A stretch of 64,000 nt of DNA, taken from positions 2,294,001-2,358,000 of the forward strand of contig CP155566.1 in assembly GCA_039696685.1 (NCBI GenBank). The letters are read 5' to 3'. Below the pieces are notes generated by a model. That model saw nothing but the letters and a program-made list of their open reading frames with translations. It did not search any database and was not told where the DNA came from. The DNA comes from Vibrio sp. CDRSL-10 TSBA. GTDB lineage: Bacteria > Pseudomonadota > Gammaproteobacteria > Enterobacterales > Vibrionaceae. A program made the position numbers and the translations under genes. Of the stretch, positions 1,232-64,000 are shown piece by piece (the stretch's first letter is position 1; each line of letters starts with the position of its first letter).

Positions 1232-3245
1232 TCACAAGGCATGATAGAGCGCGTCGCTTGTATCATGACCTGCCCGGCTGCGTTTTTCATCATACATGGC
1301 ACCATCGGTTTGATGGATAACATCATGCAGCGACATATGCTTGCTGCGCCCGCTTGATACTCCAACGGCCGCCGTTACCTCAAAACTGATGTCACGTTCA
1401 GTGCAGATAAACAGAAAGCTCTGCAGTTTATTCACCACCGATGTCAGCTCTTCACCTTTTACATCGCCAATCAGCACAAACTCATCGCCACCGATTCGAT
1501 AAGCTTTACCACGCCAGACATGATTGATGCGGCTGGCCAGTTGTTTTAGTACCTTGTCACCGATTTCATGACCATAGGTGTCATTAATCGATTTAAAGTC
1601 ATTCAAATCCAAATATAGCAACGTGTTACTCGGCGAAACTCCACGTCGGTAGCGACGATACAAGGCTCGCCGGTTACGCAGTTTGGTCAGATTATCGGTA
1701 TCTGACACAAAGTGCAGATAACCCGCGATAAGCACTAAAAACACCACCAGAGATGCAAACAACCACTGACTATGCCGGGCAACACGTTGTTCAGTTAAAA
1801 GTGTCGCACGCCAATCCGGCTGATAGTCATAATGTTTAACGATTTTCTGCGAGTCGATAATTTTAATCGCACGGCTGATAAGCGGTGCGAGTGCGGCACC
1901 AAATGCATTTTTCGGAAACGCGATGCCGACATCATAAGTATAAAAACTGCCAATCAGCTCATCTTCAACAATAGATAAGAGCGAATGCGAGTGACGTAAT
2001 ACATTGTTGAAGTTACCCAGGCTGAGAAACAATGTAATCAACCTGCTTATCGACCAGAGCCTGAATCAGTTCATTTTGCGAATCGAAGGTCTGCAACGTT
2101 TTGTTTGGCAGCATGCGCATCATCAGCTCTTCGAAAAAATCGTTTTTCACCACACCGATGCGTTCAACGACCAACTCAGAGACATTGCTGTAGACGTTGT
2201 CTTTGTAGCCTTCACGTTTAACCATAATGGCCTGAGGGCTGTAATAACTGTCGCTGAAATAGACTTTCTCTTTGCGCGGCTCTGAGATAGTGATTGGCGC
2301 AATCATATCAATACGGGCCTGCTGGATGTCGTTGTACATGCTTTCCCAGGTTTCGTCGGCTTTGCTGACCAAATCGCATTTCAGTACCAGGAGATCGCAC
2401 GCCTGAAACAAAATATCCGCGCTGATACCACGTACAGAACCATCACTGGCGTAGTGAGCAAACTGAGGAATATTTTCCAGCTTAACCCGCAGCGGACGCT
2501 GTAAATTGATATCACTGTCGAGTACCGCCTGGCGCAGTGCCTGCTTGCGGATGTCGAACTGATATTTTTGTATCGATTCGCGCAGTAATTTTTGCACTTT
2601 CGCCGAATGAATATAGGCCTCGAACTGATTCAGTAACGCCCCGTGCTGGCCTTTCGGCACTACAATCGACACCGGCTGAATAGAGATATGGTCATTCAAT
2701 AGCTGGGCATCCATCCCCGCACTCAGCATAGGTTTGAGCTGATTGATGGCATCGATCACGCCATCCACTTCACCACTTTTGAGCATCGCCTGTGCATCTT
2801 TGGACCCGTCGTACTCGACCTGCTCAATATCTGGGTAGTTTTTCGCCACCAGCTCACCGTAAATCGTCCCTTTCGGAACACCAATGCGCTTAATCCCGGT
2901 TAGCGTCGCATTATTATGGCTGTATAAATAGGTGTATTCGATATTGGTGGGCGCAGAGTAATCAAACCGCTCAGCGCGCTCACTGGTGTAGGTAACATTG
3001 GCGGCAAAGTCAGTTTCGCCAGACTCAACGGATTTAAGAATCGCATCAAAACTGGGATAATTGACATATTGAATGTCGACATTGAACTGATACGCGATGG
3101 CATCAAACAGCACACGCGTGACTACATCGTCGGCTTCGGTAGCGACTAAATAGGGCGCGTCAGCATTTTGCTCTGCATGGACCGATACTGAACAGACGAA
3201 CAGCACCAGTCCCAAACAGGCACGAGTGACTAGAGTTTTAAGCAT
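1232..3245 (-). CDS. Membrane diguanylate cyclase with tandem periplasmic solute-binding-like domains (frame break at 2026-2030)
   Basis: A signal peptide (MLKTLVTRACLGLVLFVCSV) is followed by two SBP_bac_3-like modules, about residues 30-235 and 250-470. The first includes the FDYSAPT signature and the second VYFSDSYYSP. A membrane helix lies at about 495-513 and a C-terminal GGDEF domain follows, with an intact YRIGGDEFVLIG active site near 585-589. It should make c-di-GMP in response to a periplasmic ligand, possibly an amino acid by analogy with HisJ-type domains. The frame breaks at GTTTC (2026-2030). Deleting one T gives D-Y-I-V-L-S-L-G and a continuous 670-residue protein. The stop is about 130 bases before ffs on the same strand. 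Confidence 0.85.
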
Positions 3246-3372
3246 TGACGTTGATATAAATAAATTTTATTTTTAGTAGTAACTGATGATAACCATTTTT
3301 TAAGGATATGCATAAAGACTTATTTGAGGCCAGTTCATAACTTTGCACTGGCTTGGATTTTTCATGCATATT

Positions 3373-4110
3373 CTACAGCGGTTGTTCCTCATTACTTTTG
3401 AGGATGTAGTCGGTCATCCAGGCCGTTGCCAGCAGGCATAACCACACCACAAACACCGGATTGGGGACATCAATTTCCGGTGACAGAATCACAGCCATAA
3501 AGCCGACTGAAGGCAGTGTCCAGCACAGCAGCTTACCCCACTGGAATTTTTTCTGCTGGCTCAGGCTTTCGATCACAGCCACTAATCCGGTCAGGCACAA
3601 GGCAAGCACGGCAGCCATCTGCAGCCCGGAAACCCAAAGCGGAACGATCAGCGCTAACGGCCACCAACTGTGTTGCTGGGTTGGTTTCCAGCTTGCCGCT
3701 GACCACCAGATCATGCCCATCGCGAGGATCTGCACCATGGTCATCGCCGGTGTTCCTGACAGCCTCCCGGCCGACTGAGTGACCATGATGCCCACTTCAA
3801 GAGTAATCACAATCAATGCGCCAACCGCGATCACCGGCATATTACACGGGTGGGAAAACACCACCATCAACAACGGAAAAATGACCCACATACTGACTGA
3901 AAGCGAGGCAGGCTGATAAGGAATGGTTAACGCATAACCAAGTACGCCCAGCAACAAAATAACACCGCTGAAGCCGCTGCGGCTCAGCAGCCACAAAGCC
4001 GGAATGATAAACGCAATAAACGGCATGTCACCACCACTCAGGCCAAGTGCTCGCGCACAGACCATCGCCAGCAGTATTGTGGTGATGAACTGAAAAGTAG
4101 ACAATAGCAA
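3373..4110 (-). CDS. Multi-pass inner membrane protein of unknown function
   Basis: A 245-residue protein made almost wholly of hydrophobic helices, roughly eight by eye, with short loops and a charged C-terminus (ILKSNEEQPL). No ATG is available near the N-terminus. A TTG at 4108-4110 with AGGAG six bases upstream is the best start. It is divergent from the alkyltransferase-like gene. I do not recognise a family. The many Trp and Met residues and lack of a charged motif give no clue to a substrate. Confidence 0.65.
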   Translation of the reverse strand: MLLSTFQFITTILLAMVCARALGLSGGDMPFIAFIIPALWLLSRSGFSGVILLLGVLGYALTIPYQPASLSVSMWVIFPLLMVVFSHPCNMPVIAVGALIVITLEVGIMVTQSAGRLSGTPAMTMVQILAMGMIWWSAASWKPTQQHSWWPLALIVPLWVSGLQMAAVLALCLTGLVAVIESLSQQKKFQWGKLLCWTLPSVGFMAVILSPEIDVPNPVFVVWLCLLATAWMTDYILKSNEEQPL

Positions 4111-4171
4111 CGCCCGCTCCTTATCCTTTCCCTGGAATCCTTACCCTAGAATAAAATAGGACTTTGTTATT

Positions 4172-5097: not shown

Positions 5098-5962
5098 ATG
5101 AGCAAACCATTACAAGAGCTGTTGAGTTTACTCCAGCTGGAAAAACTGGAAGAAGGGCTGTACCGCGGCGAAAGTGAAAACCTTGGCCTGCCACAGGTAT
5201 ACGGCGGACAAGTGATTGGTCAGGCACTCTCTGCTGCGCGCTATACCGTGGATGCGGGACGCACAGTACACTCTTTCCATAGCTACTTCCTTTATCCGGG
5301 CGACCCGGAAAAACCGATCATCTATGATGTCGAGAACCTGCGTGACGGACGTAGCTTTTCCACCCGCCGGGTCAAAGCAATCCAGAAACGGGCGCCCGAT
5401 CTTCTACCTCACCGCCTCATATCACGGTGAAGCACCGGGTTTTGAACATCAGAAAACCATGCCGGATGTGCCGGGGCCGGAAAACTTTGCTTCTGAATCT
5501 GAACTCGCGGAGCAGATTGCTCACCTGCTGCCGCCAAAAGTGAAAAAAATCTTGTGTGGTGAAAAGCCAATTGAAATGCGCCCGGTAACGGTGATTAACC
5601 CTCTCAAACCAGAAAAGGCAGAACCCAAACAGTATCTCTGGATTCGTGCCAATGGGGCCATGCCGGACAATCAGCTGATTCACCAGTATCTGCTGGCCTA
5701 CGCTTCCGACTGGGGCTTTTTGGTAACCGCCCTGCATCCGCATGAAGTCACGCTGATGACGCCTAAGTTCCAGGTTGCCACCATTGATCACTCTATCTGG
5801 TTCCACCGTCCGTTTAAAATGGATGAATGGTTGCTGTATGCGATTGAGAGCCCGACAGCCAGCAATACGCGCGGTCTGGTGCGGGGCGAAATATACAATC
5901 AGCAGGGCGATCTGGTCGCCAGTGCCGTACAGGAAGGAGTGATGCGATTTAAAGATCGCTAG
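5098..5962 (+). CDS. tesB: Acyl-CoA thioesterase II (frame break at 5385-5389)
   Basis: After repair it is a 287-residue double-hotdog thioesterase hydrolysing medium/long acyl-CoA to fatty acid and CoA. Family landmarks are [39 protein letters not shown], and YASDWGFL, whose Asp corresponds to catalytic Asp204 of E. coli TesB. The frame breaks at CAGAAACGGG. Removing one A gives A-I-Q-N-G-R-P-I-F-Y, the expected family sequence. AGAGG precedes the ATG. The break is judged a sequence error. Confidence 0.92.
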
Positions 5963-6647: not shown

Positions 6648-6660
6648 TACAACTTCACCA

Positions 6661-8388: not shown

Positions 8389-9736
8389 CTACTGATTCTG
8401 AAACAGCTGTGCGAGCTGGGTCAGACTGGACGGATAATCGACCGCTTCACCGGCAGCCTGCTGCAAATAGGCTTTCAGTTGCGGATACATGGCAACCGCG
8501 CGATCCAGTTCACCATCCTGCCCCGGCTGATAACCGCCTAATGGCAGTAGCTCTTTGACCTGCAGATAATTTGAATAAAGCTGACGGAAACTGGTTCGAC
8601 ACAGTGACATGTGCCGGCTGAGTACAGGCCGACATACAACGGCTTATCGAGGCATTAATATCAATTGCCGGATAATGGCCCTGCTCGGCCAACTGACGTG
8701 ACAGCACGACGTGACCGTCAAGGATTGCCCGGGCTGAATCAACCACAGGGTCCTGCTGATCATCACCTTCCGCCAGCACGGTATAGATAGCGGTCAGACT
8801 ACCATCCGGGTTGTCACTGTTACCGGCCCGCTCTAGCAGTTGCGGCAGCACGCTGAACACCGACGGCGGATAACCGCGTGACGCCGGCGGCTCGCCGAGC
8901 GAGAGCGCGATTTCACGCTGCGCCATCGCATAACGGGTCAGAGAATCCATCAGCAGCAGCACATCTTTGCCCTGATCGCGGAAATACTCCGCGACCCGAT
9001 GGCATAATAAGGTTGAACGCAGGCGCATCAGGGGCGATTCGTCCGCCGGAGCTGCGATGATAATGGCCTTTTTACGTGCTTGTTCGCTCAGATTACGTTC
9101 AATGAATTCACGGACTTCGCGTCCGCGCTCGCCGATCAGGCCCACCACAATCACATCCGCTTCGGTGTTCTTAGTGATCATCCCCATCAGGACACTTTTA
9201 CCCACGCCGCTGCCCGCCATCAGACCGATACGCTGGCCTTTGCCGACCGTCAGTAAGCCATTGATCGTCCGTACACCCACATCCAGCGGCGTATCGACCG
9301 GACGACGTTTAAGCGGGTTAATTGGCTTTGGCTCAAGCGATACCCGCTCACCACCCCGCAGCGCAGGGCCGTCATCGAGCGGCTCACCAAGACCATTCAC
9401 CACCCGTCCCAGCCACTGGCTGCTGATCTGCACCATGCTGTCGCCTTCGAGCGGAATCACCTTAGCGCCGGCAAACAAGCCGCCCAAACGACGAATAGGC
9501 ATTAAATAGGCAACATTGTGATCGAAACCAACCACTTGCGCTTCGATCATGTCGCCTTCTGCCGTTTCAACCATGCAGCGCTGCTCGAGCTTAAACCGGC
9601 AGCCGACCGCCTGCAGCATCAGGCCGTTCACTTTGACCAGACGTCCGGTGACCCGAGCCACCGGTACCGAATCGAGTGATGCCAGAGCGTCGTTAAGCCG
9701 CTCTGACAACTGACCGGACGAAACCGAGCTACTCAT
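8389..9736 (-). CDS. fliI: Lateral flagellum-specific ATPase FliI (frame break at 8587-8591)
   Basis: A 448-residue F1-beta-like ATPase powering lateral type III export. Walker A is GSGVGKS at about 175-181, Walker B is VLLLMDSLTRYAMAQREI, and the family motif GYPPSVFSVLPQLLERAG is present. The C-terminal part is in another frame. Deleting one T in GTTTC (8587-8591) joins HVTVSNQ to FRQLYSNYLQVKELLPLGGY, as in other FliI proteins. Its ATG overlaps the fliH stop. The break is read as a sequence error. Confidence 0.93.
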
Positions 9737-13578: not shown

Positions 13579-14911
13579 TTAGGCGGCTGAACCTAATACT
13601 GACTGTAGATCGATTCCTTGCTCACGCATGGCGGCAAGTTTGTAGCGCAGAGCTCTGGTCGTCACACCCAGTGCGTTGGCGGTTTTAGTACGATTGCCAC
13701 CAAACTGACGTAATTTGTCCAGGATGTACTGATATTCCGCCTGCTTTTTCGCTTCAACGTGCCCCATCGTGGTATCGGTAACACTCGGCGCAGACGTTGC
13801 AGCATATTCGACGGGCAGCATGAGATCCTGCGCGGTGATGTAATCACCGTGGCGCATTACCAGTGCACGCTGAATAATGTTTTCCAGCTCCCGGATGTTC
13901 CCCGGCCAAGGGTACTGGCTGAGAGCCTGACGCGCGTCCTGAGATAGAAAACACTGGCTGCCATCCTGATACTTGTTAATAAAAAATTGGCTGATAGGCA
14001 GAATGTCCTCTTTGCGCTCCCGCAACGGAGGCCAGTGCAGCGGCAGAAACATCAAGACGATAGTAGAGATCTTCCCGAAACAAGCCTTTCTGTACCTGTT
14101 CACGCAAATCTTTATTGGTAGCGGCGATAACGCGAATATCGAGTTGAATTGCCTTGTGGCTGCCAACCCGCTCCACCTCACGCTCTTGCAGCACACGCAG
14201 TAGTTTGGCCTGTACCGCCGGAGACATTTCACCAATTTCATCCAGCAAAATGGTGCCGCCGTTGGCTTCTTCGAACTTGCCGCTTTGCGAGGCCAGCGCG
14301 CCGGTAAACGCCCCTTTAACATGGCCAAACAGCACCGCTTCCAGCATAGATTCCGGAATAGCCGCACAGTTAACCGCCACAAACGGGCCATCTGCGCGAC
14401 TCGATTGCTGATGGACATAACGCGCCAACACTTCTTTACCTGTACCGGATTCACCGGTAATCAACACACTGGCGCTGGTACAGGCGGCGCGATGAGCCAA
14501 CTGCAACACCTGTTTACTGCGCCAGGATTCAGCAACGATATTGGCCATCGGCTTACCTAAAGCTTCAACGCGGCGCAGCAGGTTCAGTAACTGAGCGGAC
14601 TCAAACGGACGCAGCAGGTAATCGGTCGCTCCGGCTTTCATCGTTTCCGCCGCAACGATACCTTGATCCTGATCGACGATCGCGATCGCCACGCCTGCCC
14701 CGGTCTGCTTCTGGTGGCACGCGACCCATTCGCGTACTCCCATATCCGGTAAGTTTGCACTAACAACGGTTATTGCTGCCGATTGCTCAAGCAATGCGCT
14801 GCGCCCGGTACGAACATGGCGCACGCGATAACCGGCTTCCATCAAGACATCAATCATAGGTTGAGCAAGATTGTCATTGGGCTCAACCAACAGAACATCT
14901 GACTTCGTCAT
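13579..14911 (-). CDS. lafK: Lateral flagellar sigma54-dependent activator LafK (frame break at 14046-14050)
   Basis: A 443-residue bacterial enhancer-binding protein, master regulator of the lateral system. The N-terminal receiver-like domain has Ser51 where the phospho-acceptor Asp is expected (VVSANLPDM) and Arg101 instead of the conserved Lys (YLLRPF), so it is probably not controlled by phosphorylation. AAA+ domain: Walker A GESGTGKE (153-160), GAFTGA (200-205, contacts sigma54), Walker [11 protein letters not shown] (about 221-230). A Fis-type helix-turn-helix ([20 protein letters not shown]) closes it. One T removed at GTTTC gives [20 protein letters not shown] overlap with motY. Confidence 0.92.
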
Positions 14912-17576: not shown

Positions 17577-18336
17577 ATGATTCAACCGCGCTCCTTCCGC
17601 TGTCTGGGCCTTCTGGCGTTGGCACTGATATTGTTTTCAGTGCCGACTCTGGCCGCCGATAACGGCCTGACTCTGTTTACGGTCTCGGACGGCAATACCG
17701 AGCAAGAGTACAGCGTTAAACTGCAAATTCTGCTGCTGATGACTGCGCTCAGCTTTCTGCCCGCCTTTATCCTGATGGCCACCAGTTTCACCCGCATCAT
17801 CGTGGTGCTGGCAATATTGCGTCAGGCGCTTGGCCTGCAGCAAAGCCCACCCAACCGGGTTTCTGGTCGGAATTGCGCTGGCGCTGACCGTGCTGATTAT
17901 GCGCCCGGTGTGGAGCGACGTTTACGAACACGCGTTTAAGCCTTATGACCAGGGTGAAATCACCCTGATGCAAGCCTTTTCGACTGCAGAAAAACCGGTA
18001 CGTGATTTCATGCTGGCACAAACACAGCAAAGTTCACTCGAACAGATGCTGCGCATTGCCAACGAGCCACTCGATCAAAACCTGGACGATATTTCATTTG
18101 CCGTCGTGCTGCCGGCCTTTGTGATCAGTGAATTGAAAACTGCGTTCCAGATCGGTTTTATGCTGTTTATTCCGTTTTTAATCATTGACCTGGTGGTCGC
18201 CAGCGTACTGATGGCGATGGGTATGATGATGCTGTCACCGCTGATTGTGTCGCTGCCTTTCAAACTGGTGGTGTTTGTCTTGGTGGATGGCTGGGCAATG
18301 ACGGTCGGCACACTGTCCGCCAGTTTTGCCCAGTGA
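17577..18336 (+). CDS. fliP: Lateral flagellar export gate protein FliP (frame break at 17859-17863)
   Basis: A 252-residue core of the FliPQR export gate with a cleavable signal peptide (LALILFSVPTLAADN). Conserved membrane segments are MATSFTRIIVVLAILRQALG, FAVVLPAFVISELKTAFQIG and DLVVASVLMAMGMMMLSP. The frame breaks at CCGGGTTTCTGG. Removing one T gives PPNRVLVGIALALT, the expected QxPPNQVLVG-type motif. The break is a probable sequence error. fliQ follows 17 bases later. Confidence 0.94.
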
Positions 18337-19399: not shown

Positions 19400-20527
19400 G
19401 CGATTCAGCTTCTGCTCAGGACAAAACCGAGAAGGCCTCGCCGCAGAAAATCAAAAAAGCGCGCGAGCAGGGCCAGATCCCAAGAGCCAAAGAAACTGAC
19501 CACAGCCATGATTTTTCTTGCCGTGGTGGTCTATTTTTCCGCACAGATGTCGGCCATCTGGCAGGCGGTTTCCGGTGTGTTCCGCTACAACATGTCGCTG
19601 ACCAAACAAGATCTGGCCAATCCGATGCAGATGGTGGAACAGCTCGGCCATACCCTGGGTATCCTGATTGAACTCTTGCTGCCGCTGTTTATCGTCATCA
19701 TTGTGGTCACACTGGCCGGCAGTATGATTCTTGGCGGCTGGATGTTTCGCCCGGCCAATGTTCAGCCCAAGCTGAGCAAACTGAATCCAATAAGCGGTAT
19801 CGGGCGAATTTTCTCCAGCCGCTCAGTGGTTGACCTTATTAAGTCCAGCCTCAAAGTCAGTGTCATCTTTGCTTTGCTGTATGGCTACATGGATAACCAT
19901 TTACAGCCGCTTATTGGTATCCAGCGTCTGCCGTTAAACGAAGGTTTTGTGCTCATCATGCAGATCCTGTTTGATGGTCTGCTGCTGATGGGATTTGCCC
20001 TGCTGTTGTTTGGTTTTGTCGATGTGCCTTACCAGCGCTGGGAGCACCTCAAACAGTTAAAAATGAGCAAGCAAGAGCTGAAAGAAGAATACAAAAGTAA
20101 TGAAGGCCGTCCTGAGGTCAAACAGCGTATTCGTCAGATTCAGCAACAGTTTGCGCGGCGTAAGATTGACAAAATGGTACCGCAGGCAGATGTGGTGATC
20201 GTTAACCCGACCCACTACGCGGTCGCCATTAAATACGATACGTCAATGTCAGAAGCGCCGTTTGTGGTGGCCAAAGGGGTGGACGAAACCGCCATGCATA
20301 TCCAGCGCATCGCACGTGAAAACCAGGTGGAAATTATTAATTCTCCGCCGCTGACCCGATCGATTTATTACACCACTGCGATTGAGCAGGCAATTCCGAG
20401 CCAGCTTTACATCGCTGTGGCCCATATCCTGACCTACGTCCTGCAGCTGAAATCGTTCCGGCGCGGTAAAGGCCAAGAGCCGCTCCCGCTGCCGCATTTT
20501 ACGATTCCAAAACATCTGCAGCACTGA
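19396..20527 (+). CDS. flhB: Lateral flagellar export switch protein FlhB (frame break at 19492-19496)
   Basis: A 376-residue protein with four membrane helices and a cytoplasmic domain that auto-cleaves at the NPTH motif (VVIVNPTHYAVAIKYD, about residue 271) to switch export specificity from rod/hook to filament proteins. The N-terminus (DKTEKASPQKIKKAREQGQI) is typical. The frame breaks at GAAACTG (19492-19496). Removing one A gives AKELTTAMIFLAVVV, as in FlhB homologues. Confidence 0.94.
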
Positions 20528-20554: not shown

Positions 20555-22649
20555 ATGCTCAACTGGTTAAAACACTGGCAACACTCCGGCAAGGGCTATA
20601 TCGGCATTCCCCTTGTCCTGCTGATGGTACTGGCAATGGTGATCCTGCCGCTGCCACCACTGCTGCTGGACGCCCTGTTTACCTTTAACATTGTGCTGGC
20701 CATCCTGGTGCTGCTGGTCAGTACCACCGCCAAACGACCGCTCGATTTTTCCATCTTCCCGACCATTTTGCTGGTCGCGACCCTGCTGCGCCTGACTCTG
20801 AACGTCGCGTCGACCCGGATTGTCCTGCTCGAAGGCCATAATGGAGGTGACGCGGCAGGTAAAGTGATCCAGGCCTTTGGTGAAGTGGTGATCGGCGGCA
20901 ACTATGTAGTCGGTATGGTGGTGTTCATCATCCTGATGATCATTAACTTCGTGGTGATCACCAAAGGTGGAGAACGGATTTCTGAAGTATCGGCACGTTT
21001 CACCCTGGATGCTCTGCCAGGTAAACAGATGGCGATCGATGCCGATCTTAATGCCGGTCTGATTGATCAGGAAGCCGCCCGCCTGCGCCGCCGCGAAGTC
21101 GCCAACGAAGCCGACTTCCACGGTTCGATGGACGGTGCGTCTAAATTTGTGCGCGGTGACGCCGTCGCCGGTCTGATGATCCTGTTTATCAACATCATCG
21201 GCGGTATCAGCATTGGTGTGTTCGAGCATGGCCTGCCGGCATCCGAAGCGTTCAAAACCTACGCACTGCTGACTATCGGTGATGGTCTGGTGGCCCAGAT
21301 CCCGTCACTGCTGGTGGCGACTGCCGCTGCCATCATAGTGACCCGCATTAATGACAGCGACAACGACATGTCGCAAACCATGCACAAGCAGTTACTGGCC
21401 AGCCCGGCTACCCTGTATACCGTGGCCGGTATTATGGTGGTCATCGGTATCGTACCCGGCATGCCTCATCTGGCTTTCTTTGCCTTTGCTGCCGCCCTCG
21501 CGTTTGCAGGCTGGCGCCAGAGTAAACGCCCGGCCGATGAACATCAGCTCGATGAAGTGGCCGCCATTTCTCAGGCCATGCAGCAGGAATCACAAGGCCC
21601 GCTCGGCTGGGAAGATATTCCCCACGTGCATACGTTATCGCTGTCACTGGGTTATCGTCTGGTGCATCTGGTCAATAAAGAAACAAGGGGCACCGCTGAC
21701 CCAGCGGATTCGCGGCGTACGACGTAACCTCTCCGAGCAGGTCGGTTTTCTGCTGCCTGAGGTACGCATTCGCGATAATCTGAGTCTGAAACCAAATCAG
21801 TACACCATTGCCCTCAATGGCGAACAGATTGAACAAGGCTTTATCGAGCCGGATCGCCTGATGGCGATTGCGGTTGGCGAAACGTACGGTGAAATCGACG
21901 GTATTCTTGGCAGTGACCCGGCCTATCAGTTGCCGGCGGTATGGATTGAACACAGCCAGAAAGCGCGTGCGTTGAATATGGGCTATCAGGTAGTGGACGA
22001 CGCAACTGTGGTCGCGACCCATATCAGCAAAGTGATGAAAACCCACCTGGCCGAGCTGTTCCACCATGATGATGTCGAAGCCATGAACCAGCGTCTGACG
22101 GCTCAGGCACCCAAGTTGGCAGAAGCACTGGGCGCTGCGCTGAGACCGGCTCAGCAGCTCAAGGTGTACCGCCAGTTGCTGCTCGATCAGGTGCCGCTGA
22201 AAGACGTACGTACCATTGCCAATACCATGCTGGAGTCTTCGGAAAACACCAAAGACCCGATTCTGCTGGCCGCCGATGTGCGCTGTGCGTTGCGCCGCAC
22301 CCTGATTAATCTGCTGGCGGGACAAAAAAACGAAATCCCGGTTTATGCCTTGTCGGATGAACTGGAAAAAATGCTGATGACGTCGCTGCACCAGGCACAA
22401 GCCAGTGGCAGCGTCATGCTGGACAGCTTCCCGATCGAGCCGAATATTCTTGGTCAGTTCCAGCAAAATCTGCCGCTGATCCGTCAGCAGCTCAAGCAGC
22501 AGGGCATGACCCCCATCTTGCTGGTGATGCCGCAGTTGCGTCCGCTTATCGCACGTTATGCGCGAACCTTCTCGCAAGGTTTAGCGGTGTTGTCATACAA
22601 TGAAATCCCAGAGAATAAACAAATCAACGTGGTAGGAAACCTTGGCTAA
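20555..22649 (+). CDS. flhA: Lateral flagellar export gate protein FlhA (frame break at 21680-21684)
   Basis: A 697-residue export gate protein. The N-terminal half has about eight helices with the FHIPEP motif region (PTILLVATLLRLTLNVASTR, FTLDALPGKQMAIDADLNAG, then GSMDGASKFVRGDAVAGLMI). The C-terminal cytoplasmic domain binds export chaperones. The frame breaks at AAAGAAACAAGG. Removing one A restores HLVNKEQGAPLTQRIRGVRR. The stop overlaps the start of the next gene. The AGGAAACC there is a ribosome site and part of V-V-G-N-L-G, not another break. Confidence 0.94.
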
Positions 22650-23682: not shown

Positions 23683-24556
23683 ATGGCTCTATCAATGCAC
23701 ACTAACTACGCTTCACTAGTGACTCAAAACACTATCAACAGCACAAGCAACCTGCTGAACACCGCGATGGAGCGTCTGAGCACTGGTTACCGCATCAACT
23801 CAGCAGCTGATGATGCAGCTGGCCTGCAAATCTCTACCCGTCTGGATGCGCAAACTCGTGGTATGAATGTAGCGATGCGTAACGCACAAGATGGTCAGTC
23901 TATGATGCAAACCGCTGAAGGTTCTATGGATGAGATGACCAACATCGTTTACCGTATGAACGACCTGGCAACTCAGGCATCGAACGGTTTCTCTGACGGA
24001 TACTGACCGTACTGCTCTGGATACTGAATACCAGCAACTGGGTGAAGAGCTGGCGAACATCATGGATACCACCAGCTTCGGTGGTAACAAACTGCTGCAA
24101 ACTGGCGGCGGTACGTTTGAAGCAGCAGCGGTGAACTTCCAGATCGGCACTCAAGCCGGTGACCAACTGGCAGTCGACGTAAGCACTGAAGTTCAGGCTA
24201 TCAACACAGCTGTAGGTACTTCAGGAGCTCTGGCACTGGGTGACCTGACTTCTGAAGCTAATGCACAAGCTGCTCTGACAACGCTAACTGGCGCAGACGG
24301 TGAAGCCGGTCTGTTGGGTCAAATCGGTGAAGCACGTTCTGCATTCGGTGCCAACATCAACCGTCTTGATCACACCATTGCTAACCTGGGCAACATGGTA
24401 GAAAACACTTCTGCAGCGAAAGGCCGCATCACGGATGCTGACTTTGCCGTTGAATCGTCAAACATGACTAAGAACCAGATGCTGATGCAGGCAGGTACTA
24501 CTGTTCTGTCTCAGACTAACCAAATGCCAAGCATGGCAATGTCACTGCTGCGCTAA
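23683..24556 (+). CDS. lafA: Lateral flagellin LafA (frame break at 23987-23991)
   Basis: A 290-residue flagellin of the lateral filament. The conserved D0/D1 N-terminus is present ([15 protein letters not shown] [54 protein letters not shown]), as is the C-terminus ([18 protein letters not shown], then [20 protein letters not shown]). The variable middle is short, as in lateral flagellins. The frame breaks at GGTTTCTC. Removing one T gives [23 protein letters not shown] precedes the ATG. Single gene with its own terminator, so strong independent expression is expected (sigma28/LafS by family knowledge). Confidence 0.95.
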
Positions 24557-27111: not shown

Positions 27112-28195
27112 ATGCAAAGTGTCAAAACTATACCTAGCAGCCAAACGATGCCAAGCAGCCAAAAGATGCAAAGTGTGACGCCTGCCCAGACATCAGCGGC
27201 GCAGCACAAGCAAAGCGCCAACCGCAGCGAAATCAAACAAGCGCGTCAGTTTGACGGCCAGTCGTCCGGCCCGGCAGACAGTTTTCGTCTGGCGCCAAAT
27301 TCGACGGCGCAAATCGCAACGATGGCGCCGGCAGAGAGCGAAGAAGCGATCACGGATAGCACCGACTCAGAACAAGAGATGTCTGATCTGATGCAGCAGC
27401 TGTTCGCTGTCGTTGCCGTACCGAGTGATAAACCGGTAATGACCTCTCAGGCTCTGGCAGCAGGCGCTTTACAAAGCAGTCAAACGGGCTTTGAGAGCGC
27501 AATGTCCGCCGGCAATTCTGCAGCCTCACTCAACCAGAGTACAACCGGCTCAGCGGCTCAGGCTTCGGCACTCAGTTCACAGCTGCTGTCCGGGTTAACC
27601 GGCGACCAGGACATGCCTCTTCATAAAACCGCATCGCTCAGCCAGGATAACCTGCAGTCCGTGCCACCTGCCGCCGCAACCACAAGCGTGACAACTGCAA
27701 CGACAACAGCCTTGTCGTCAGCACTGACCGGTTCGACAGCCAGCAGCAACGGCGGCGCAGAATGGGCCAGTGTCCGCATTGACACCCAGGCCGGTAAGTG
27801 GGGCGAACAAATGCTGCAGGTTTCTGCAGGATCGGGTAACCCTGCAAGCGCAGCAAAATCTGCAGGAAGCCAAAATCAGGCTTGATCCGCCCGACCTGGG
27901 TAAGCTGGATTTGACGGTGCGGGTTGAAGGTGATCGTCTCAGCGTACAAATCCACGCCAACAGTGCCGCCACCCGTGAAGCTCTGCTGCAGGTTTCTGAC
28001 CGTTTACGCGCGGAATTACAGAACCAGAACTTCGTTCACGTCGATGTGAATGTCGGCTCAGAGCGTGGCGGTCAGTCGCAACATCAATCCGATGCGCAGG
28101 AGGACAATACTCCGACGGTTTTCGCCGCCCGTAACAGTGATTCATCTACGCCCAACCTTTCGATGTCTGAGCACTGGCTCAGTACTCAGGCCTGA
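27112..28195 (+). CDS. fliK: Lateral hook-length control protein FliK (LafE) (frame break at 27820-27824)
   Basis: A 360-residue protein. The N-terminal two thirds are low-complexity, rich in Ser/Thr/Ala/Gln, the expected molecular ruler. The C-terminal domain carries the FliK signature (RVTLQAQQNLQEAKIRLDPP, then DLGKLDLTVRVEGDRLSVQI). The frame breaks at CAGGTTTCTGCAGG. Removing one T gives QMLQVLQDRVTLQAQQ. The early sequence contains short repeats (SSQTMPSSQKMQSV). It acts with FlhB to switch export after hook completion. Confidence 0.9.
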
Positions 28196-38185: not shown

Positions 38186-38213
38186 TACCTTTTCCTTCAT
38201 CGCTCACTGCCCC

Positions 38214-39000
38214 TTACATTGACTGCGCAACGAAACTGCAGCATGTCATCGGCGGCCGAGACCACCTTGGCATTCATCTCGTAGGCGCGCTGAGTGGTGA
38301 TCATATCCACCATTTCTTCCACGACTTCGACGTTTGAGCCTTCCAGCACACCTTGCTTGATGCTGCCAACGCCGTCTTCACCCGCCACAACCTCATCAGC
38401 AACACCACTGGCTTCCGTTTCACGGAACAGGTTACCGCCTACCGCTTCCAGACCAGCCGGATTGATGAAACGCGCCAGCGTGATCTGACCGATCTGCTGT
38501 GGCGCCGGATCGCCGGCACTGGTCACACTGACCGTACCGTCCACGCCGACCGACAGAGAAGTGGCGTTATCCGGAATCTGAATCTGTGGTTGCAACGGCA
38601 GGCCCTGGCTGTTGACCATCAGGCCTTCCGAGTTGACGTGAAACTGGCCGTTGCGGCTATACATGATTTCGCCGTCAGAGTTTTCAATCTGAAAAAAGCC
38701 CTGGCCCATTACCGCCAGGTCCATATCCTGACCGGTGTTTTGAGTGTTGCCCTGGGTAAAGACTTTTTGGGTGCCGACCACGCGCACACCGCTACCCAGC
38801 TGAACCCCGGTTGGCAGCTCATTGACCTGATCGACCTGCGCGCCCGGCTGACGCTGGATGCTGTAGAACAGATCCTCAAACACCACCCGATCGCGTTTGA
38901 AACCAACGGTATTGACGTTCGCCAGGTTGTTGGAAATGGCGGTCATCTTGGTGTCCTGAGCCGCCATACCGGTTTTACTGACCCATAATGCTGAATGCAT
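38214..39000 (-). CDS. flgG: Lateral distal rod protein FlgG (frame break at 38232-38236)
   Basis: A 261-residue distal rod protein: MHSALWVSKTGMAAQDTKMT, ISNNLANVNTVGFKRDRVVF, LAVMGQGFFQI and EMVDMITTQRAYEMNAKVVS. Uncorrected, the last residues read QFRCAVNVRGSER and run past the normal end. Removing one T in GTTTC gives DDMLQFVAQSM and a stop at 38214, matching the usual FlgG length of about 260. Confidence 0.94.
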
Positions 39001-43620: not shown

Positions 43621-43903
43621 ATGAAAATTGACAAAGTCTCCGGTGGACACGTACCGCAAACGGCGCTGCAACAGAGCAGTAAACAACCGCTGCAAACTCA
43701 AAGTGCCACTCAGACCAACGAAACCGGCGATGAATGCCAACACCGTTGCTCTGGATAAAGCTCAGACCGAACTGGCTCAGCTTCCGGATGTGGACATGGC
43801 TAAAGTGGAACAGGTGCGTACGATGCTGGCTAAAGGCGAGTTAAGTCTGGACAGCAAAGCATTAAGTCAGGCACTGATGCAATTTCATACTGGCCACGAA
43901 TAA
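43621..43903 (+). CDS. flgM: Lateral anti-sigma28 factor FlgM (frame break at 43720-43724)
   Basis: After removing one A in CGAAACCGG it is a 93-residue FlgM: MKIDKVSGGHVPQTALQQSS at the N-terminus, and the sigma28-binding C-terminal half VDMAKVEQVRTMLAKGELSL, DSKALSQALMQFHTG. It would hold LafS (28725-29453) inactive until exported through the finished hook. About 180 bases separate it from flgA, so it may have its own promoter. A GCGCGG/CCGCGC hairpin lies at 43499-43525 in that gap. Confidence 0.9.
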
Positions 43904-45688: not shown

Positions 45689-46565
45689 TCAGCCCTGAAT
45701 ACCAACAATCAGCCATGGTGCATTCGGCGTTGTCAGGTCACGTTTCCAGGTGCCAGATGTCTTCGATATCCTCTTCGATACCTTCACCCGCATCACGGTA
45801 ACGGCCGCTAAACTGCAGGCTCAGCTGCGCTTTGCTCGCATCATAATCAGCACGTACGATTTCTGCATCCACATACATCACGTCGGTCTGCGGAGCCGTG
45901 TCAATCTTGGCACGCTCTTCTTTCAGGTCTTCAAACAGGCTTGGTGACACATATTCCTCAATGGTGTGCAGCTGGTTGTGGTTCCAGGCACCTTGCAGAA
46001 TACGGTAATGCTCACGCGCACCGTTGATGAACGCGACGCGATCGAAACCGGCCGGTAAATTGTGCGGTACATCGCTTTGCATCGTGCTACCAAAACCACC
46101 TGCAGGTGCTTGCGGCTGCTCAAAGTTGTGCACATTCGGCTGTTCAAACTGGTTGCGGTTCATTCCGCCAAACGCCGGTTGCTGCTGGTTCATACTGCCC
46201 TGCTTGGCCCCCAACACTCCGCGCATCAGTTTAAAGATCACGAAAGCAATCAGACCCATGATCAGGATATCCATAAACTGGATACCTTCAAAAGCGCCAC
46301 CGAAGAAGGCAGCCAGCAAACCACCAGCCAGAAGGCCGCCCAGCAGACCACCCATTAATCCTTTTTTAGAGGAATTCTGTGCTGTTTGTGTGCCGTTTTG
46401 TTGTTTTAGCGAATTGGTCGGTTGGCTACTTTGCGTCGGCGCAGGCGATGTGTTGTAGCTTTTACCAAATGACTTACCGCCACCAAATTTTTTGGCAGCA
46501 TCCGCCACTGGGGTAAACGCAACAGAAACCATCACTAATGCGACCAGAGAAAACAGACGTTTCAT
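45689..46565 (-). CDS. Tim44-like domain membrane protein (frame break at 45742-45746)
   Basis: A 291-residue protein after repair. The N-terminus has a signal (MKRLFSLVALVMVSVAFTPV), a Ser/Gln/Asn-rich linker, glycine-rich hydrophobic segments (GLMGGLLGGLLAGGLLAAFF, FMDILIMGLIAFVIFKLM), then a C-terminal Tim44-like domain (FINGAREHYRILQGAWNHNQ, YVSPSLFEDLKEERAKID). Uncorrected it ends at DIWHLET. Removing one A in GGAAACGTG gives DIWHLERDLTTPNAPWLIVG and a stop at 45689. Widespread in proteobacteria; role unknown. Confidence 0.87.
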
Positions 46566-46970: not shown

Positions 46971-47562
46971 ATGGCAAGACGAAACGACCATACACGAGAC
47001 GAGCTGATTGCGTTGACCCTCAATACGGTAAAAGAATTTCTCCACACGCACTCTCACCACGAACTGAGCCTGCGTAAAATCGCGACAATGATCGGCTATG
47101 TGCCGAGTACATTAGTGAACGTGTTTGGTAATTACAATCTGCTGCTGCTTCATGTGGTGGCACAAACGCTGGACGAAACTGGCTACCGAAGCCAAAGCCG
47201 TAGTGACCCAGAGTAAAGATCCGGCTCAGGCACTTTATCAGCTCGCTTACTGCTATCACGACTTTGCCAAGAAAAATCCTTATCGCTGGCAGTTAATCTT
47301 TGCCCATAATATGAATGGCGAACAGTTGCCTGAGTGGCAGTCGCAGCGGATTGAACACATGACCAGCATGCTGGAAGGACTGCTACACGTCATGGCCCCT
47401 CAGCGTACCGACAGTGAAATTCTGCGCACCAGCCGGGTTTTGTGGTCAGGAGTGCATGGAATCACCCTGCTGAGTGTAGACGACAAATTCTTCGCTGCTG
47501 AGCCTGTCGATGGCAAGGCATTGATTGAAGACCTACTCTCTAACTATCTGGCCAACTGGTAA
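46971..47562 (+). CDS. TetR-family regulator with WHG C-terminal domain (frame break at 47175-47179)
   Basis: A 196-residue repressor after repair. The N-terminal helix-turn-helix is HHELSLRKIATMIGYVPSTL followed by VNVFGNYNLLLLHV. The C-terminal domain contains the TetR WHG-type motif (RVLWSGVHGITLLSVDDKFF). Removing one A in GACGAAACTGG gives AQTLDELATEAKAVVTQSKD. ATG 46971 preferred over an earlier GTG. The stop is 16 bases before the MFS/acyltransferase gene, so both form an operon. Confidence 0.87.
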
Positions 47563-52301: not shown

Positions 52302-53276
52302 ACCAGCTCCTGATCCTGCAGTGTCTGCACTGGCAGTTCACAACCCGGCCAGGCGGTTTCAAGCTGCGCCTGATAAAGACCTATGGTATCCAGCCCAGGA
52401 ATTTCATCCGGTAACAACCATTTGGACAGGCGGGCTAACTGGGTCAGACCCAGACTCGATTCCAGGCTGGAACTGACCACCACCTGAAGATTGAGTGCTC
52501 TGGCTTTCTCAACCAGACGAATACAGAAAGGTACGGAACCAATCACGGTCGGTTTAATAATGATGGTTTTGGCGCCGGTCAGCTCTTCGAGACGAAAATC
52601 ATCCATCCGTACTGCCTGCTGCAGCGTCTCATCCCAGGCAATCGCGATCCCGGTATCGATGGCAAACGACAGGCTCTCACTCGGTGAATGGCACGGTTTC
52701 TTCGATATAAGTAATCCGGCCACGACGTGACGGAGCGACATACTGAGCGAATTTAGCCGCTTTTTCTTTGTTCCAGGCGCGATTGGCATCGAGACGCAAA
52801 GTCAGATCCGGCATGGATTCGAGAAACAGGTTAACCAGCATGCCGTCACGTACCGGCTCATACAGGCCAACCTTAATTTTAGCGACCTTTTTACCAGGCA
52901 TAGCTTCCAGTTGCGGGATCAGTTCATCCGGGTCGCCGGTGCACAGCGGTGCGGCCTGATATTGCCCATCTTGGGGCAACTCACCAGCCAGTTCCAGCTC
53001 AGCCATAGACACACCAAATGCCACAGACGGAAATAATTCATCCAGTCCAAGCGGTTGCCCTTTAACCCACAGTTCCAGCTGTTCCTTAGCCAGGGCTCCC
53101 GCCTCGTCAATGGTTTCGACGCTAAATCCTTTTAACGGCGCGACTTCACCACGCCCTATTCGGCCATTTTCCTGAAGTTCGACAATGAAGCCTTCACGTT
53201 CGGTTAATTTCTCTTCACGAAGAATGACGCCGCTATCCATCGGCAGACGATAACGGTACAGTTTTGCGCTGCGCAT
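52280..53276 (-). CDS. menC: o-Succinylbenzoate synthase (frame break at 52696-52700)
   Basis: A 331-residue enolase-superfamily enzyme that dehydrates SHCHC to o-succinylbenzoate. Metal and catalytic motifs: AKIKVG (Lys pair), [21 protein letters not shown] and [10 protein letters not shown]. Uncorrected the N-terminal frame stops after [10 protein letters not shown]. Removing one A in GAAGAAACCG gives [21 protein letters not shown] 53276 ([13 protein letters not shown]). It is separated from menB by a terminator. Confidence 0.93.
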
Positions 53277-54274: not shown

Positions 54275-55101
54275 GCTGATTCCCATTGTTGTCACTCGCT
54301 GTTGATGACAGCGAGCCAATTAAACGCTGAATGATCAGGGCGAACGCCTCAGGCTGCTCATGATGAACATTGTGCCCGGCCTGCCCGACCTGACTGAAGC
54401 TCAGCCCGCTTTGTGTTGCGAGCTGCGAAAATTTGCTGTCCCGTTCACCACACACATAATGCATCTTTAAGCGGGTTCGTTGCAGTGCCGGCAGCAGGTA
54501 AGGCTGGGTTGCCAGCGAGGTTGATAACAGCATACCTGCCACTGCCTGACCAAGATTAGCACTGCGTTTGGTGATTAAGGTTTGTCTTTGCGCATGGTTT
54601 AGTGAACTAAATACCGCTTGTTGATACCAATCGCTTAATACCTGTGCAATCGGTTCGTGCGCGAAACGCATCGCCCAGCGACTGTCATTAATCCAGCGCT
54701 GCTGCCGTTTCTTGATCGGTTTGCAGGCCAAAATTACCACCTTCAATCAGCAAGCCTGTGAGGTTACAGCCACTGAACCAGCCACACGCGGCCCCTGCCA
54801 TGGCAATGCGTCCGCCAAGTGAATAGCCGACCAGCCATATCGGGCGCTTTCCCCCGGCGCGGCGGACAATGGTTTGTGCCACCTGTTCACAGCATTGCTG
54901 TAAATCGTCACAGCAAATCGCTTGGCTGTGACCATGTCCGGGCAAATCAATAGCCAACCAGTCTGCATCCGGTAGACGATCCAATACCGGCTGCCAGTCA
55001 TGTGTGCTGCCGAGCAAGCCATGCAGAAACACCAGCAACGGCCGTTCTACCGCCGATGGCGTGTTATCTGAGCAATGACCGGACGAGCGACTATAGAGCA
55101 T
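54267..55101 (-). CDS. menH: SHCHC synthase, alpha/beta hydrolase (frame break at 54707-54711)
   Basis: A 277-residue hydrolase that eliminates pyruvate from SEPHCHC. Motifs: [18 protein letters not shown], the nucleophile elbow [10 protein letters not shown] (Ser), the [13 protein letters not shown] loop and the C-terminal [15 protein letters not shown] with the catalytic His. Removing one A in CAAGAAACGGC gives [23 protein letters not shown] 55101 overlaps the end of menD. Confidence 0.92.
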
Positions 55102-56839: not shown

Positions 56840-58144
56840 GAGGCAACTCCCAGCGGCAGATTGTCACTGATCAAACTGAGCAGAGTGGACATCTTCTTGT
56901 CCAGCTCCTGCCACTCATAGTGAGCTTCTGAGCCTGGTACAATCCCGGCCCCGGCATAAAGTTGGACTTCATTTTCCAGCACCAGAGCACTGCGGATTGC
57001 GACACAAAATTCTGCCTGCTGATGGCTGAAATAGCCCATCGAACCGGCATACCAGCCGCGGGCAAAAGGTTCATGCCGGGTAATAAAATCCAGCGCCGGT
57101 TTACGCGGCAGTCCTGCCACAGCAGCGGTCGGCTGCAAAGCACTCAACAGCTGTACGCCATTCACCCCGGGTTGCAAATTGGCGTGAATCGCCCGCTTCA
57201 AGTGCTGCACTTTACTCAGGCGCACCAGGTGCGGTTTCCGGATCGACATCGATAGATTCAGCATGTGGCGTAAGACGTTCAATAATGTCATCCACCACCA
57301 CCTGATTCTCATGCAGATTCTTGCGATCTTGGGTCAACCAGTTCGCCAGTTCCAGATCATGAGCGGCATTAGCACCGCGCCCGATAGTCCCGGCCAGCGC
57401 TTCGGTATACAGCTCCTGACTGTGGCGTAAATAGAGCCGCTCGGGCGTCGAGCCCATAAAACAGTGTTTACTGTCCAGCGCCAGCATAAAGTGAAAACTG
57501 TGATGGTTTTGCTGCGCACTGGCTTTCAGCAACTGAGCGGCACTGAGCGGGCCATCGAGAGTTAAACGGGTCTGACGGGCAAGGACGACTTTTTTAAAGT
57601 CCTGTTTTTCAATACCGTCTAACACGTCCTGTACCAGTTGCGCCCAGCCGGACTCACTCGGTGCATGCCGGACCTGTCTCACTTCACGGTGAATGGCAGG
57701 TAACGGTTTAACTTCCGCCACCAACTTGTTGAGGGTGGCAAGTGTCCGGGCCGATTCCTGATTGACATTCGCCGCCAGCAGCCAGGTATTATCCACCCGC
57801 ATCAGTTCAACCTGAGGCAAAAAGAAAAATGACGACATGCAGCGCTGGTTTTTATCGGTATGACCGTCAAACGATCGTCCGCCCCAAACGCGTTGATTCT
57901 CACCGACAATGGCATAGGCCGGTGCCGGATCGGTAAAAGTATATAACTGCCCGAGCGCAATCACTTCCTCGCGGCTATCTCGTGACTGCCAGTAAAATTT
58001 AGGGTAGACCGGTTGGGCTTCAAGCCAATCGATAAGCGCGAATGGCGGCTTTCCTGCCAGCACCTGAGTGAAACGGACGTCGTTTTCCTGCGCGTCGTGG
58101 ATTTGCTCTATTAAGTGAGCAATGGCTTGATAAAAATTCAACAA
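56836..58144 (-). CDS. menF: Isochorismate synthase (frame break at 57234-57238)
   Basis: A 435-residue chorismate-utilising enzyme, first step towards menaquinone. Motifs: WGGRSFDGH, DFKKVVLARQTRL, HCFMGSTPERLYLR, EALAGTIGRGAN, QPTAAVAGLPRKPAL, GYFSHQQAEFCVAIRSAL and AGIVPGSEAHYEWQELDKKM. The frame breaks in CCGGAAACCG. Removing one A gives DVDPEPHLVRLSKVQHLKRA. Head of menFDHB; the promoter lies in the 314-base region shared with alaA. Confidence 0.93.
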
Positions 58145-59779: not shown

Positions 59780-60365
59780 ATGAAAGAAAGCCATTTTTTT
59801 GCCCACCTCGCCCGTATGAAACTCATTCAGCGCTGGCCACTGATGCGTTCCGTTTCCAAAGAGAACATCTCCGAACACAGCCTGCAGGTAGCGTTTGTCG
59901 CCCATGCACTGGCCGTGATTAAGAATAAAAAATTCGGCGGACAACTCAATCCCGAGCGGATTGCGATTCTGGCCATGTATCATGACTCGAGTGAAGTGCT
60001 GACCGGCGACCTGCCAACACCTATCAAATACTTCAATCCGGACATCGCCAAAGAGTACAAAAAAATCGAAGCAGCCGCAGAAACGTCGCCTGCTGTCAAT
60101 GCTGCCGGAAGAATTTCACGACGATTTTGCGCCTTTTCTGGTCTCCGATGCAGCGCATGCCGAGGATTCCGCGATCGTCAAACAAGCCGACTGCCTGTGC
60201 GCTTATCTGAAATGTCTGGAAGAGCTCAGCGCCGGTAACCACGAATTTGCTCTGGCCAAAAAACGTCTCGATGTGACGCTGCGTGAGCGCTACACCGAAG
60301 AAATGGATTATTTTCTGCAAACCTTTGCCCCCAGCTTTGAATTAACACTGGACGAGATAAGCTAA
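59780..60365 (+). CDS. yfbR: 5'-Deoxynucleotidase YfbR (frame break at 60080-60084)
   Basis: A 194-residue HD-domain phosphohydrolase that removes phosphate from deoxynucleoside monophosphates. HD residues lie in [15 protein letters not shown] and [20 protein letters not shown], with the second metal Asp in [17 protein letters not shown]. Removing one A in GCAGAAACGTC gives [23 protein letters not shown] 59780 ([15 protein letters not shown]) matches the E. coli start. Confidence 0.92.
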
Positions 60366-61739: not shown

Positions 61740-61759
61740 AACAAATGACTGAATGAAGG

Positions 61760-62390: not shown

Positions 62391-62393
62391 ATT

Positions 62394-62939: not shown

Positions 62940-63365
62940 ATAAGGTGACAAGAAAGTACTGACTTCTTCACCGCACATCCCGACCTCTACAGTGATCCCG
63001 GCATTTTTCAGCATCTCAATACCCATGCCATTATTTCGCGGGTCCGGATCTAACATTGCAACCACAATGTGCCGAATTCCGCTATTCACCAGAGTCACCG
63101 CACAAGCCGGTGTTCTGCCAACAAACGAACATGGCTCCAGAGTTACATAAGCGGTTACGCCTTCACGACTGCCCCTTAGTTGATTGAGAGCCTCAACTTC
63201 TGCATGATTATCACCAACAGCCTGAGTAAATCCTTCAGCAATAATTTCGCCATTTCTGACTAAAACACAGCCTACCGGTGGATTGGGTCTGCATTGAGGC
63301 AATGCCAGTTGTGAGATGGCTAATGCTCTTTGCATAAATATTCGTTGTTTGTCTGAAGTGTGCAT
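62925..63365 (-). CDS. Stand-alone RibD-like deaminase
   Basis: A 146-residue cytidine-deaminase-fold protein equal to only the N-terminal domain of RibD: FMQRALAISQLALPQCRPNP, PVGCVLVRNGEIIAEGFTQA, zinc motif NHAEVEAL and TLEPCSFVGRTPAC, then MLDPDPRNNGMGIEMLKNAG. The RibD reductase domain is missing and the protein ends naturally. Not in a riboflavin operon here, so the substrate is uncertain (pyrimidine deaminase or a related pterin/flavin precursor). Confidence 0.85.
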   Translation of the reverse strand: MHTSDKQRIFMQRALAISQLALPQCRPNPPVGCVLVRNGEIIAEGFTQAVGDNHAEVEALNQLRGSREGVTAYVTLEPCSFVGRTPACAVTLVNSGIRHIVVAMLDPDPRNNGMGIEMLKNAGITVEVGMCGEEVSTFLSPYLGHS

Positions 63366-63400
63366 GGTTTTTTCTTCCTCTTTGACGGATCAGACTGCGA

Positions 63401-64000
63401 CTAACCCACTTCCACCACTGCCGGGTTAAACACCGGACTGTTAATAATGATCTGCTCCAGACGGCGTGTCGCTTCATTGATTTTAGGTGAAGTAAACAGG
63501 GTCACTTCCATATCCGGCAGCTCCGGCAGGTCGCTTAAAATCACCAGATCGTCTTCCAGTGTATGATAAGGCATCACGGCAATCCCTACTCCGGCACGTA
63601 CCGCCGCCAGAACACCAGAGCGGCTTTGACTGGTAAACGCAATCCTATAAGGCATTCTGGCTTTTTCCAGCGCAGAACAGGCATATTGACGATGCTGACA
63701 ACCTTCATAAAACACCACCAGCGGCAGCACTTCATGGGTATGGACAAAGTGATCTTTCGAGCCAATCCAGACTAATTCATCACGCCGCAGCCGGGTTCCG
63801 CCTTGCGTTTCCGGCCAGCATTTCAACTAACGCGATATCGAGCTTACCTTTATCCAGTAAGTCAACCAGATGATCGGGACGGTAGTCGCAGAAAGCTTCC
63901 AGTTCGGCCTCCGGATAACTGAGGATAAAGTCCTGCAGAATCGGGGCCAGTGTCTGGCTGGCATACTGGTCATGCGTTCCCAACCGCACTACCCCGTCAA
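63401..64000 (-). CDS. LysR-family regulator, C-terminal part (start off window; frame break at 63807-63811)
   Basis: The visible part is the LysR substrate-binding domain: DGVVRLGTHDQYASQTLAPI at the window edge, DYRPDHLVDLLDKGKLDIAL, DELVWIGSKDHFVHTHEVLP, VLAAVRAGVGIAVMPYHTLE, and the end EQIIINSPVFNPAVVEVG. Removing one A in CCGGAAACGC gives LAGTQGGTRLRRDELVW. The helix-turn-helix is beyond position 64000. Target genes unknown. Confidence 0.88.

What the first reader, a model, noticed from the sequence alone, without database searches (positions are those of the whole stretch)
2026..63811. Twenty-one frame breaks, all cured by removing one A/T from GAAAC/GTTTC
Breaks lie at pentamers starting 2026, 5385, 8587, 14046, 17859, 19492, 21680, 23987, 27820, 33737, 35746, 36686, 38232, 43720, 45742, 47175, 52696, 54707, 57234, 60080 and 63807. 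In every case the pentamer is GAAAC or its complement GTTTC. Deleting one base gives GAAC/GTTC, restores family-conserved residues, and makes all 20 complete genes a multiple of three long. Essential-type and unrelated genes are hit equally. Read toward C, the next base is never A (GTTC followed by C, G or T). Many GAAC/GTTC sites elsewhere are untouched, so only a subset is affected. This is a motif-specific sequencing or assembly error, not gene decay.
Basis: seen in the sequence. Interest (0 to 1): 0.8.

Follow-up and report, generated by a model that had tools for sequence, protein, structure and literature searches.

The report
Sulfur-marked DNA misread as frameshifts
The many apparently broken genes in this Vibrio genome assembly are almost certainly reading errors, most likely made where the cell's own sulfur-based (phosphorothioate) defence mark sits on the DNA, so the errors may be an accidental map of that mark.

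Summary
All 21 pentamers are where stated. Homologues support a break at 20 of 21 sites; the 21st (63807) splits a LysR-type regulator between two frames. The pattern extends beyond the window: a frameshift-aware gene model on 859 kb (17.5% of the genome) found 165 breaks, 148 with GAAAC/GTTTC in the interval (15 expected), all 148 in one shift class.

It is not gene biology. Sense GAAAC and GTTTC are about equal (66:75), most such pentamers are harmless, and homologues are one base shorter at the site.

The likely cause is DNA chemistry. GAAC/GTTC is a phosphorothioate motif of Dnd systems. I looked for dndC on that ground and found dndBCDE with dptFGH. Flanking bases partly follow the published in vivo preference. 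A second dnd+ Vibrio assembly shows the same signature at other sites.

Against: the platform, reads and chemistry are unknown, 36 other sampled dnd+ genomes lack the signature, and published per-site modification is below 40%. I read it as a phosphorothioate-caused long-read consensus error, probably nanopore.

The parts
2026..2030 (.). break site in a solute-binding/GGDEF protein
5385..5389 (.). break site in an acyl-CoA thioesterase gene
8587..8591 (.). break site near the 3' end of ORF 8510-9736 (minus)
   Evidence: one ORF; 3 of 3 pieces
14046..14050 (.). break site in a sigma-54-type activator gene
17859..17863 (.). break site in fliP
19492..19496 (.). break site near the 5' end of an unscanned gene
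   Evidence: one homologous piece; not seen or by the gene model
21680..21684 (.). break site in the flhA-type (FHIPEP) gene
23987..23991 (.). break site in a flagellin gene
   Evidence: a tie
27820..27824 (.). break site in the hook-length control (fliK-type) gene
33737..33741 (.). break site in a flagellin-type gene
   Evidence: unclear
35746..35750 (.). break site near the 5' end of flgK
   Evidence: (one ORF)
36686..36690 (.). break site in an unscanned gene of the flagellar cluster
38232..38236 (.). break site near the 3' end of ORF 38197-39000 (minus)
   Evidence: 2 of 3 pieces; not seen or by the gene model
43720..43724 (.). break site in an unscanned gene
   Evidence: one ORF; unclear
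45742..45746 (.). break site at the end of a Tim44-like gene
47175..47179 (.). break site in a TetR-type regulator gene
52696..52700 (.). break site in menC
   Evidence: adjacent gene-model break
54707..54711 (.). break site in an alpha/beta-hydrolase gene of the men cluster
   Evidence: unclear
57234..57238 (.). break site in a chorismate-binding (menF-type) gene
60080..60084 (.). break site in a yfbR-type 5'-deoxynucleotidase gene
63807..63811 (.). break site in a LysR-type regulator gene that runs past the window end
   Evidence: no homologue

Best explanation
The strain has a Dnd (DndBCDE-DptFGH) system that replaces a backbone oxygen by sulfur (phosphorothioate) on both strands at a subset of GAAC/GTTC sites, chosen partly by neighbouring bases (A favoured and T avoided before GAAC; G favoured and A avoided after). 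The genome was assembled from long reads of native DNA, most likely nanopore, without effective short-read polishing. At strongly modified sites the disturbed signal makes the consensus one base too long inside the two-A/two-T run, so intact genes look frameshifted. Shown here: the breaks, their motif, direction, strand symmetry and spread over the sampled genome, the dnd genes, the flank bias, a second genome with the same signature. Inferred: that the DNA carries sulfur, that sulfur causes the extra base, and that the platform was nanopore.
For: One motif and one shift class in 148 of 165 breaks, 9.8-fold over expectation, no other pentamer class above 1.44. Sense-strand symmetry 66:75. dndC was sought because of the motif and found; dndB, C, D, E and dptF, G, H identified; only 41 of 329 Vibrionaceae genomes, this one included, have DndC at E <= 1e-60. 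DndC 68-70% identical to that of E. coli B7A. Flanks at 141 sites against 6136 intact motifs: A/C before GAAC 114 of 141 against 2725 of 6136, G/T after it 97 of 141 against 2925 of 6136, the direction given by EcoWI-seq for modified sites. Replicate genome G134, dnd+: 21 of 24 breaks with motif, same shift; none of 9 site comparisons shared between the two genomes. dndD and dptH themselves carry such a break here, dndC in G134, so real breaks would have silenced the system. Nanopore reads err at phosphorothioate GAAC/GTTC in Salmonella, 3.9-4.4% of motifs flagged (passages), against 4.6% affected here.
Against: No reads, platform or chemistry were available. 18 closed and 10 draft dnd+ Vibrionaceae and 8 closed dnd+ genomes of other families lack the signature (1 motif break among 15); two dnd+ E. 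coli stretches of 40 kb and the B7A dnd region have no motif break. G134 was picked from dnd+ genomes, and 2 of 20 closed dnd+ against 0 of 15 dnd- genomes is no significant association. PT-IC-seq puts per-site modification below 40% in E. coli B7A and Salmonella Cerro 87 and finds no flank preference at 360 high-frequency sites (passages); an in vitro study finds no flank effect. In my data C at -1 and T at +1, part of the published preference, are not enriched, and positions -5, -4, +3 and +4 also differ. A basecaller's own context bias could mimic the flank effect.
Confidence: 0.82

Rival explanations
1. It is a consensus error at GAAC/GTTC from another cause: a base methylation at an overlapping motif, or a basecaller weakness in this k-mer without any modification. 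The dnd genes are a coincidence.
For: Modification-mediated nanopore errors from methyltransferase-linked motifs are described (PMC10687267, passages). A putative methyltransferase (TIGR04096) lies beside dndB. Most dnd+ genomes lack the signature.
Against: The 4-base core is exactly a known phosphorothioate motif and dndC, present in 41 of 329 relatives, was found on prediction. TIGR04096 occurs in 55 of 329 genomes, among them sampled ones without the signature. A pure k-mer weakness should also appear in the 15 dnd- closed genomes; one motif break was seen there.
Confidence: 0.14
2. Real insertions: a mutator or decaying genome in which GAAC/GTTC runs gain a base.
For: The assembled sequence does carry the longer form, and two separate assemblies do so.
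Against: 17 of 165 breaks only lie outside the motif; decay would give many lesion types. Genes of basic cell functions and the dnd genes themselves are hit. A mutator would not be expected to respect flanking bases that match phosphorothioate choice.
Confidence: 0.03
3. Programmed ribosomal frameshifting or transcriptional slippage at GAAAC/GTTTC.
For: All breaks are of one shift class at one motif.
Against: Sense GAAAC 66 and GTTTC 75: a ribosome or RNA polymerase would favour one strand. 2294 GAAAC/GTTTC lie in the sample and 148 breaks hold one. Homologues are shorter at the site.
Confidence: 0.01

Closest known systems
Modification-mediated nanopore consensus errors (PMC10687267; passages seen)
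   Same: Errors confined to a short motif in strains with a particular modification or defence system; other genomes unaffected.
   Different: There the errors are at GCAGC and GCTGG and are handled as mismatches; here an extra base at GAAC/GTTC, and the suspected mark is on the backbone.
Nanopore detection of phosphorothioate in Salmonella Cerro 87 (PMC9069010; passages and one section seen)
   Same: GAAC/GTTC, read errors at modified sites, 3.9-4.4% of motifs flagged.
   Different: Works on read-level error rates against amplified DNA; the parts I saw do not describe a fixed one-base lengthening in an assembly.
Dnd system of E. coli B7A
   Same: dndBCDE and dptH present in L121; DndC 68-70% identical in amino acids.
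   Different: B7A's dndBCDE lies beside an ATP-dependent nuclease and a DUF262 gene; here dptFGH and a second DndB-like gene lie beside it. No motif break in the 19-kb B7A stretch. Published per-site modification in B7A is low.

Membership tests
Dnd phosphorothioate system (GAAC/GTTC type) | dndB, dndC, dndD, dndE present | tested here: met
   L019: dndB, dndC, dndE whole, dndD in two pieces.
Dnd phosphorothioate system (GAAC/GTTC type) | DptFGH restriction partner | tested here: met
   dptF, dptG, and dptH in two pieces.
Dnd phosphorothioate system (GAAC/GTTC type) | cysteine desulfurase (DndA or IscS) | not tested
   No search made.
Dnd phosphorothioate system (GAAC/GTTC type) | target GAAC/GTTC with the published flank preference | tested here: inconclusive
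   Indirect: break sites show A at -1, G at +1, C at -2, G at +2 enriched; C at -1 and T at +1 not.
Dnd phosphorothioate system (GAAC/GTTC type) | sulfur in the DNA backbone | not testable with these tools
   Needs chemistry or signal data.
Modification-mediated sequencing error | errors confined to one short motif, on both strands | tested here: met
   148 of 165 breaks; sense 66:75.
Modification-mediated sequencing error | the genome encodes a modification system for that motif | tested here: met
   dnd genes; their motif in this strain is inferred from B7A-like DndC.
Modification-mediated sequencing error | error absent from amplified DNA and short reads | not testable with these tools
   No reads available.
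Programmed ribosomal frameshift | slip signal on the mRNA strand | tested here: not met
   Sense GAAAC 66, GTTTC 75.
Programmed ribosomal frameshift | site kept in orthologues | tested here: not met
   Homologue one base shorter in 9 of 9 comparisons between G000 and G134 and mostly at 17 of 20 window sites.
Pseudogenes by mutation | mixed lesions, not one motif and one direction | tested here: not met
   148 of 165 breaks share motif and shift class.

The most novel reading that the evidence does not exclude
The assembly errors are a fossil map of phosphorothioate: in this lineage a chosen subset of GAAC/GTTC (about 5%, set largely by an A before and a G after GAAC) is sulfur-modified in most DNA molecules, unlike the below-40% modification reported for E. 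coli B7A and Salmonella Cerro 87, and public long-read assemblies can be mined for Dnd activity and target choice without new experiments.
Probability: 0.35. Interest if true: 0.65.

Novelty: new variant of a known kind. Interest (0 to 1): 0.5.

Why it matters
Roughly 1,600 false gene breaks (an extrapolation) in one public genome distort gene counts, completeness scores and pseudogene studies, and at least one other Vibrio assembly has the same fault. If phosphorothioate is the cause, the faults show which sites carry the mark, bearing on why only a small part of these short motifs is modified, where published mapping and in vitro work disagree.

Tried and rejected
Programmed frameshifting: rejected on strand symmetry and on the many harmless pentamers. 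Gene decay: rejected because one motif and one shift class account for 148 of 165 breaks and homologues lack the extra base. The TIGR04096 methyltransferase beside dndB as sole cause: it occurs in 55 of 329 genomes, among them sampled ones without the signature.

Led nowhere: E. coli. 204 of 5426 complete genomes have dndC; the 60 of 204 records listed name all four dnd genes; two 40-kb stretches show no annotated pseudogene among 37 and 43 features and no motif break. RefSeq may screen out heavily frameshifted assemblies (recalled), so this says little. G289, picked with G134 for its contamination score, gave no motif break in 80 kb. Eight dnd+ genomes of other families gave none.

A first version of the gene model over-called at gene edges and was replaced. 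The 17 breaks without the motif were printed but not examined one by one. The G134 count changes slightly with training: 21 of 24 in 260 kb, 20 of 25 in 300 kb. Seven of the 165 intervals hold two motifs; the flank counts use the 141 with exactly one.

Papers: nine searches listed none on fixed insertions at phosphorothioate sites in assemblies; only the held open-access library was searched. Seen: PMC9069010 passages and section 17; PMC9521924 passages and section 11; passages of PMC10687267, PMC4515589, PMC6459556 and PMC9650216; PMC12506013, a term search without any passage; all others only as search listings.
Full report
Claim.

Identity. menD of the window is at most 67% identical in amino acids to named Vibrio (V. 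injensis; V. cincinnatiensis and V. metschnikovii 66%, V. furnissii 65%). The genome, G000, has 4.90 Mb in 2 contigs, 95.9% complete, 4.55% contaminated, and shares its genus with most genomes listed; I take it for a Vibrio (inference).

The 21 sites. The pentamers are as listed. Relatives' ORFs switch frame at 18 of 21 sites, always by 1 modulo 3. Homologous DNA is mostly one base shorter at 17 of the 20 sites that have a homologue. Union: 20 of 21. Site 63807 rests on two overlapping open frames whose pieces match the two domains of a LysR regulator. Pieces on either side of a site match adjoining parts of one profile: FHIPEP 1-351 and 347-656, chorismate-binding 2-140 and 137-257, FliP 1-42 and 34-191, YfbR-like 1-98 and 103-182. 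Of the 30 pieces scanned in those calls, 6 had no family match.

Extent. A gene model that allows frame shifts at a cost and gives a 95% interval (padded by 4 bases) was run on 859 kb of G000, window included: 17.5% of the genome. It found 165 breaks; 148 intervals hold GAAAC/GTTTC and all 148 are in the one-extra-base class. Random placement gives a mean of 15, maximum 25 of 165 in 200 trials. The 17 other breaks have mixed shift classes. The model finds 11 of the 21 window sites, so the true number is nearer 1,600 genome-wide, an extrapolation. Both contigs are hit: 25 in 160 kb and 123 in 699 kb. In 16 loci of relatives (329 kb) it found 1 break, without the motif.

Not gene biology. On the sense strand the 141 unambiguous sites are 66 GAAAC and 75 GTTTC; the cause acts on duplex DNA, not on a messenger. 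The sample holds 2294 such pentamers, so the pentamer itself is harmless.

Cause. GAAC/GTTC is the phosphorothioate motif of E. coli B7A and Salmonella Cerro 87. On that ground I searched the genome for dndC and found it. L019 holds dptF, dptG, dptH (two pieces), dndE, dndD (two pieces), dndC, dndB and a putative methyltransferase. DndC is 68-70% identical to that of B7A; 41 of 329 Vibrionaceae genomes have DndC at this threshold. The gene model places breaks with the motif in dndD and dptH; real breaks there should have silenced the system.

Flanks. At 141 sites against 6136 intact motifs, GAAC orientation: -2 C 0.37 vs 0.30, T 0.035 vs 0.25; -1 A 0.60 vs 0.21, T 0.02 vs 0.38; +1 G 0.43 vs 0.22, A 0.11 vs 0.32; +2 G 0.47 vs 0.35. 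EcoWI-seq reports C at -2, A or C at -1, T or G at +1 and G at +2 (section read). The directions agree, but C at -1 (0.21 vs 0.23) and T at +1 (0.26 vs 0.25) are not enriched here, and -5, -4, +3, +4 also differ towards G+C. PT-IC-seq saw no flank preference at 360 high-frequency B7A sites and an in vitro study saw no flank effect.

Second genome. Of 9 closed dnd+ Vibrionaceae first sampled, G134 stood out: 21 of 24 breaks in 260 kb hold the motif, all one-extra-base; 20 of 25 in 300 kb after re-training. Its dndC aligns in two pieces that meet at the motif, a break the gene model did not call. At 17 unambiguous G134 sites A stands before GAAC in 9 and T in 1 (background 0.21 and 0.40). In 9 of 9 comparisons (8 distinct sites) the other genome is one base shorter: the sites are not inherited.

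Absences. 18 other closed dnd+ Vibrionaceae, 540 kb: 8 breaks, 1 with motif; 10 draft dnd+ genomes, 200 kb: 1 and 0; 10 dnd- closed genomes, 200 kb: 1 and 1; 5 more dnd- genomes, 100 kb: 2 and 0; 8 dnd+ genomes of other families, 320 kb: 6 and 0. A 20-kb sample misses a G134-like genome one time in five. Since G134 came from dnd+ genomes, 2 of 20 closed dnd+ against 0 of 15 dnd- proves no association. The case rests on the motif, the successful prediction and the partial flank match. Some of these dnd+ genomes carry a distant DndC type (35-38% identical) that need not use GAAC/GTTC.

Main difficulty. Per-site modification is below 40% in the two studied bacteria. A wrong consensus needs either higher modification here or a consensus step that leans to the longer form.

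Verdict. A sequencing artefact (about 0.96), most likely caused by the strain's phosphorothioate mark (0.82). Modification-caused long-read error is a known kind; a fixed extra base at the phosphorothioate motif, frequent enough to fragment genes across a genome, was not in the listings of the nine searches named in Tried and rejected.

Noticed in passing
L019:9433-11186 (G000:C2, about 1204433-1206186): Between dptH and dndE lie a 192-aa ORF without family and a 383-aa second DndB-like protein (Pfam DndB, PADLOC DpdB).
   Followed up: partly
L019:16513-18540: Putative phosphorothioation-associated methyltransferase (TIGR04096) beside dndB; 55 of 329 Vibrionaceae genomes carry the family but only 41 carry DndC at the thresholds used.
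   Followed up: partly
L019:18679-19699: Two adjoining ORFs match the two halves of a sulphur-transport profile, next to the dnd cluster; whether one gene split or two genes was not examined.
   Followed up: no
window 8500-45000: A flagellar cluster with MotY-type, FliF, FliG, FliP, FlhA-type, hook and two flagellin-type genes; a second FliF-like gene lies elsewhere in the genome, in two pieces.
   Followed up: no
E. coli GMF065, MS1685, KE55, 2024CK-00474 chromosomes: Each has two places matching dnd genes.
   Followed up: no
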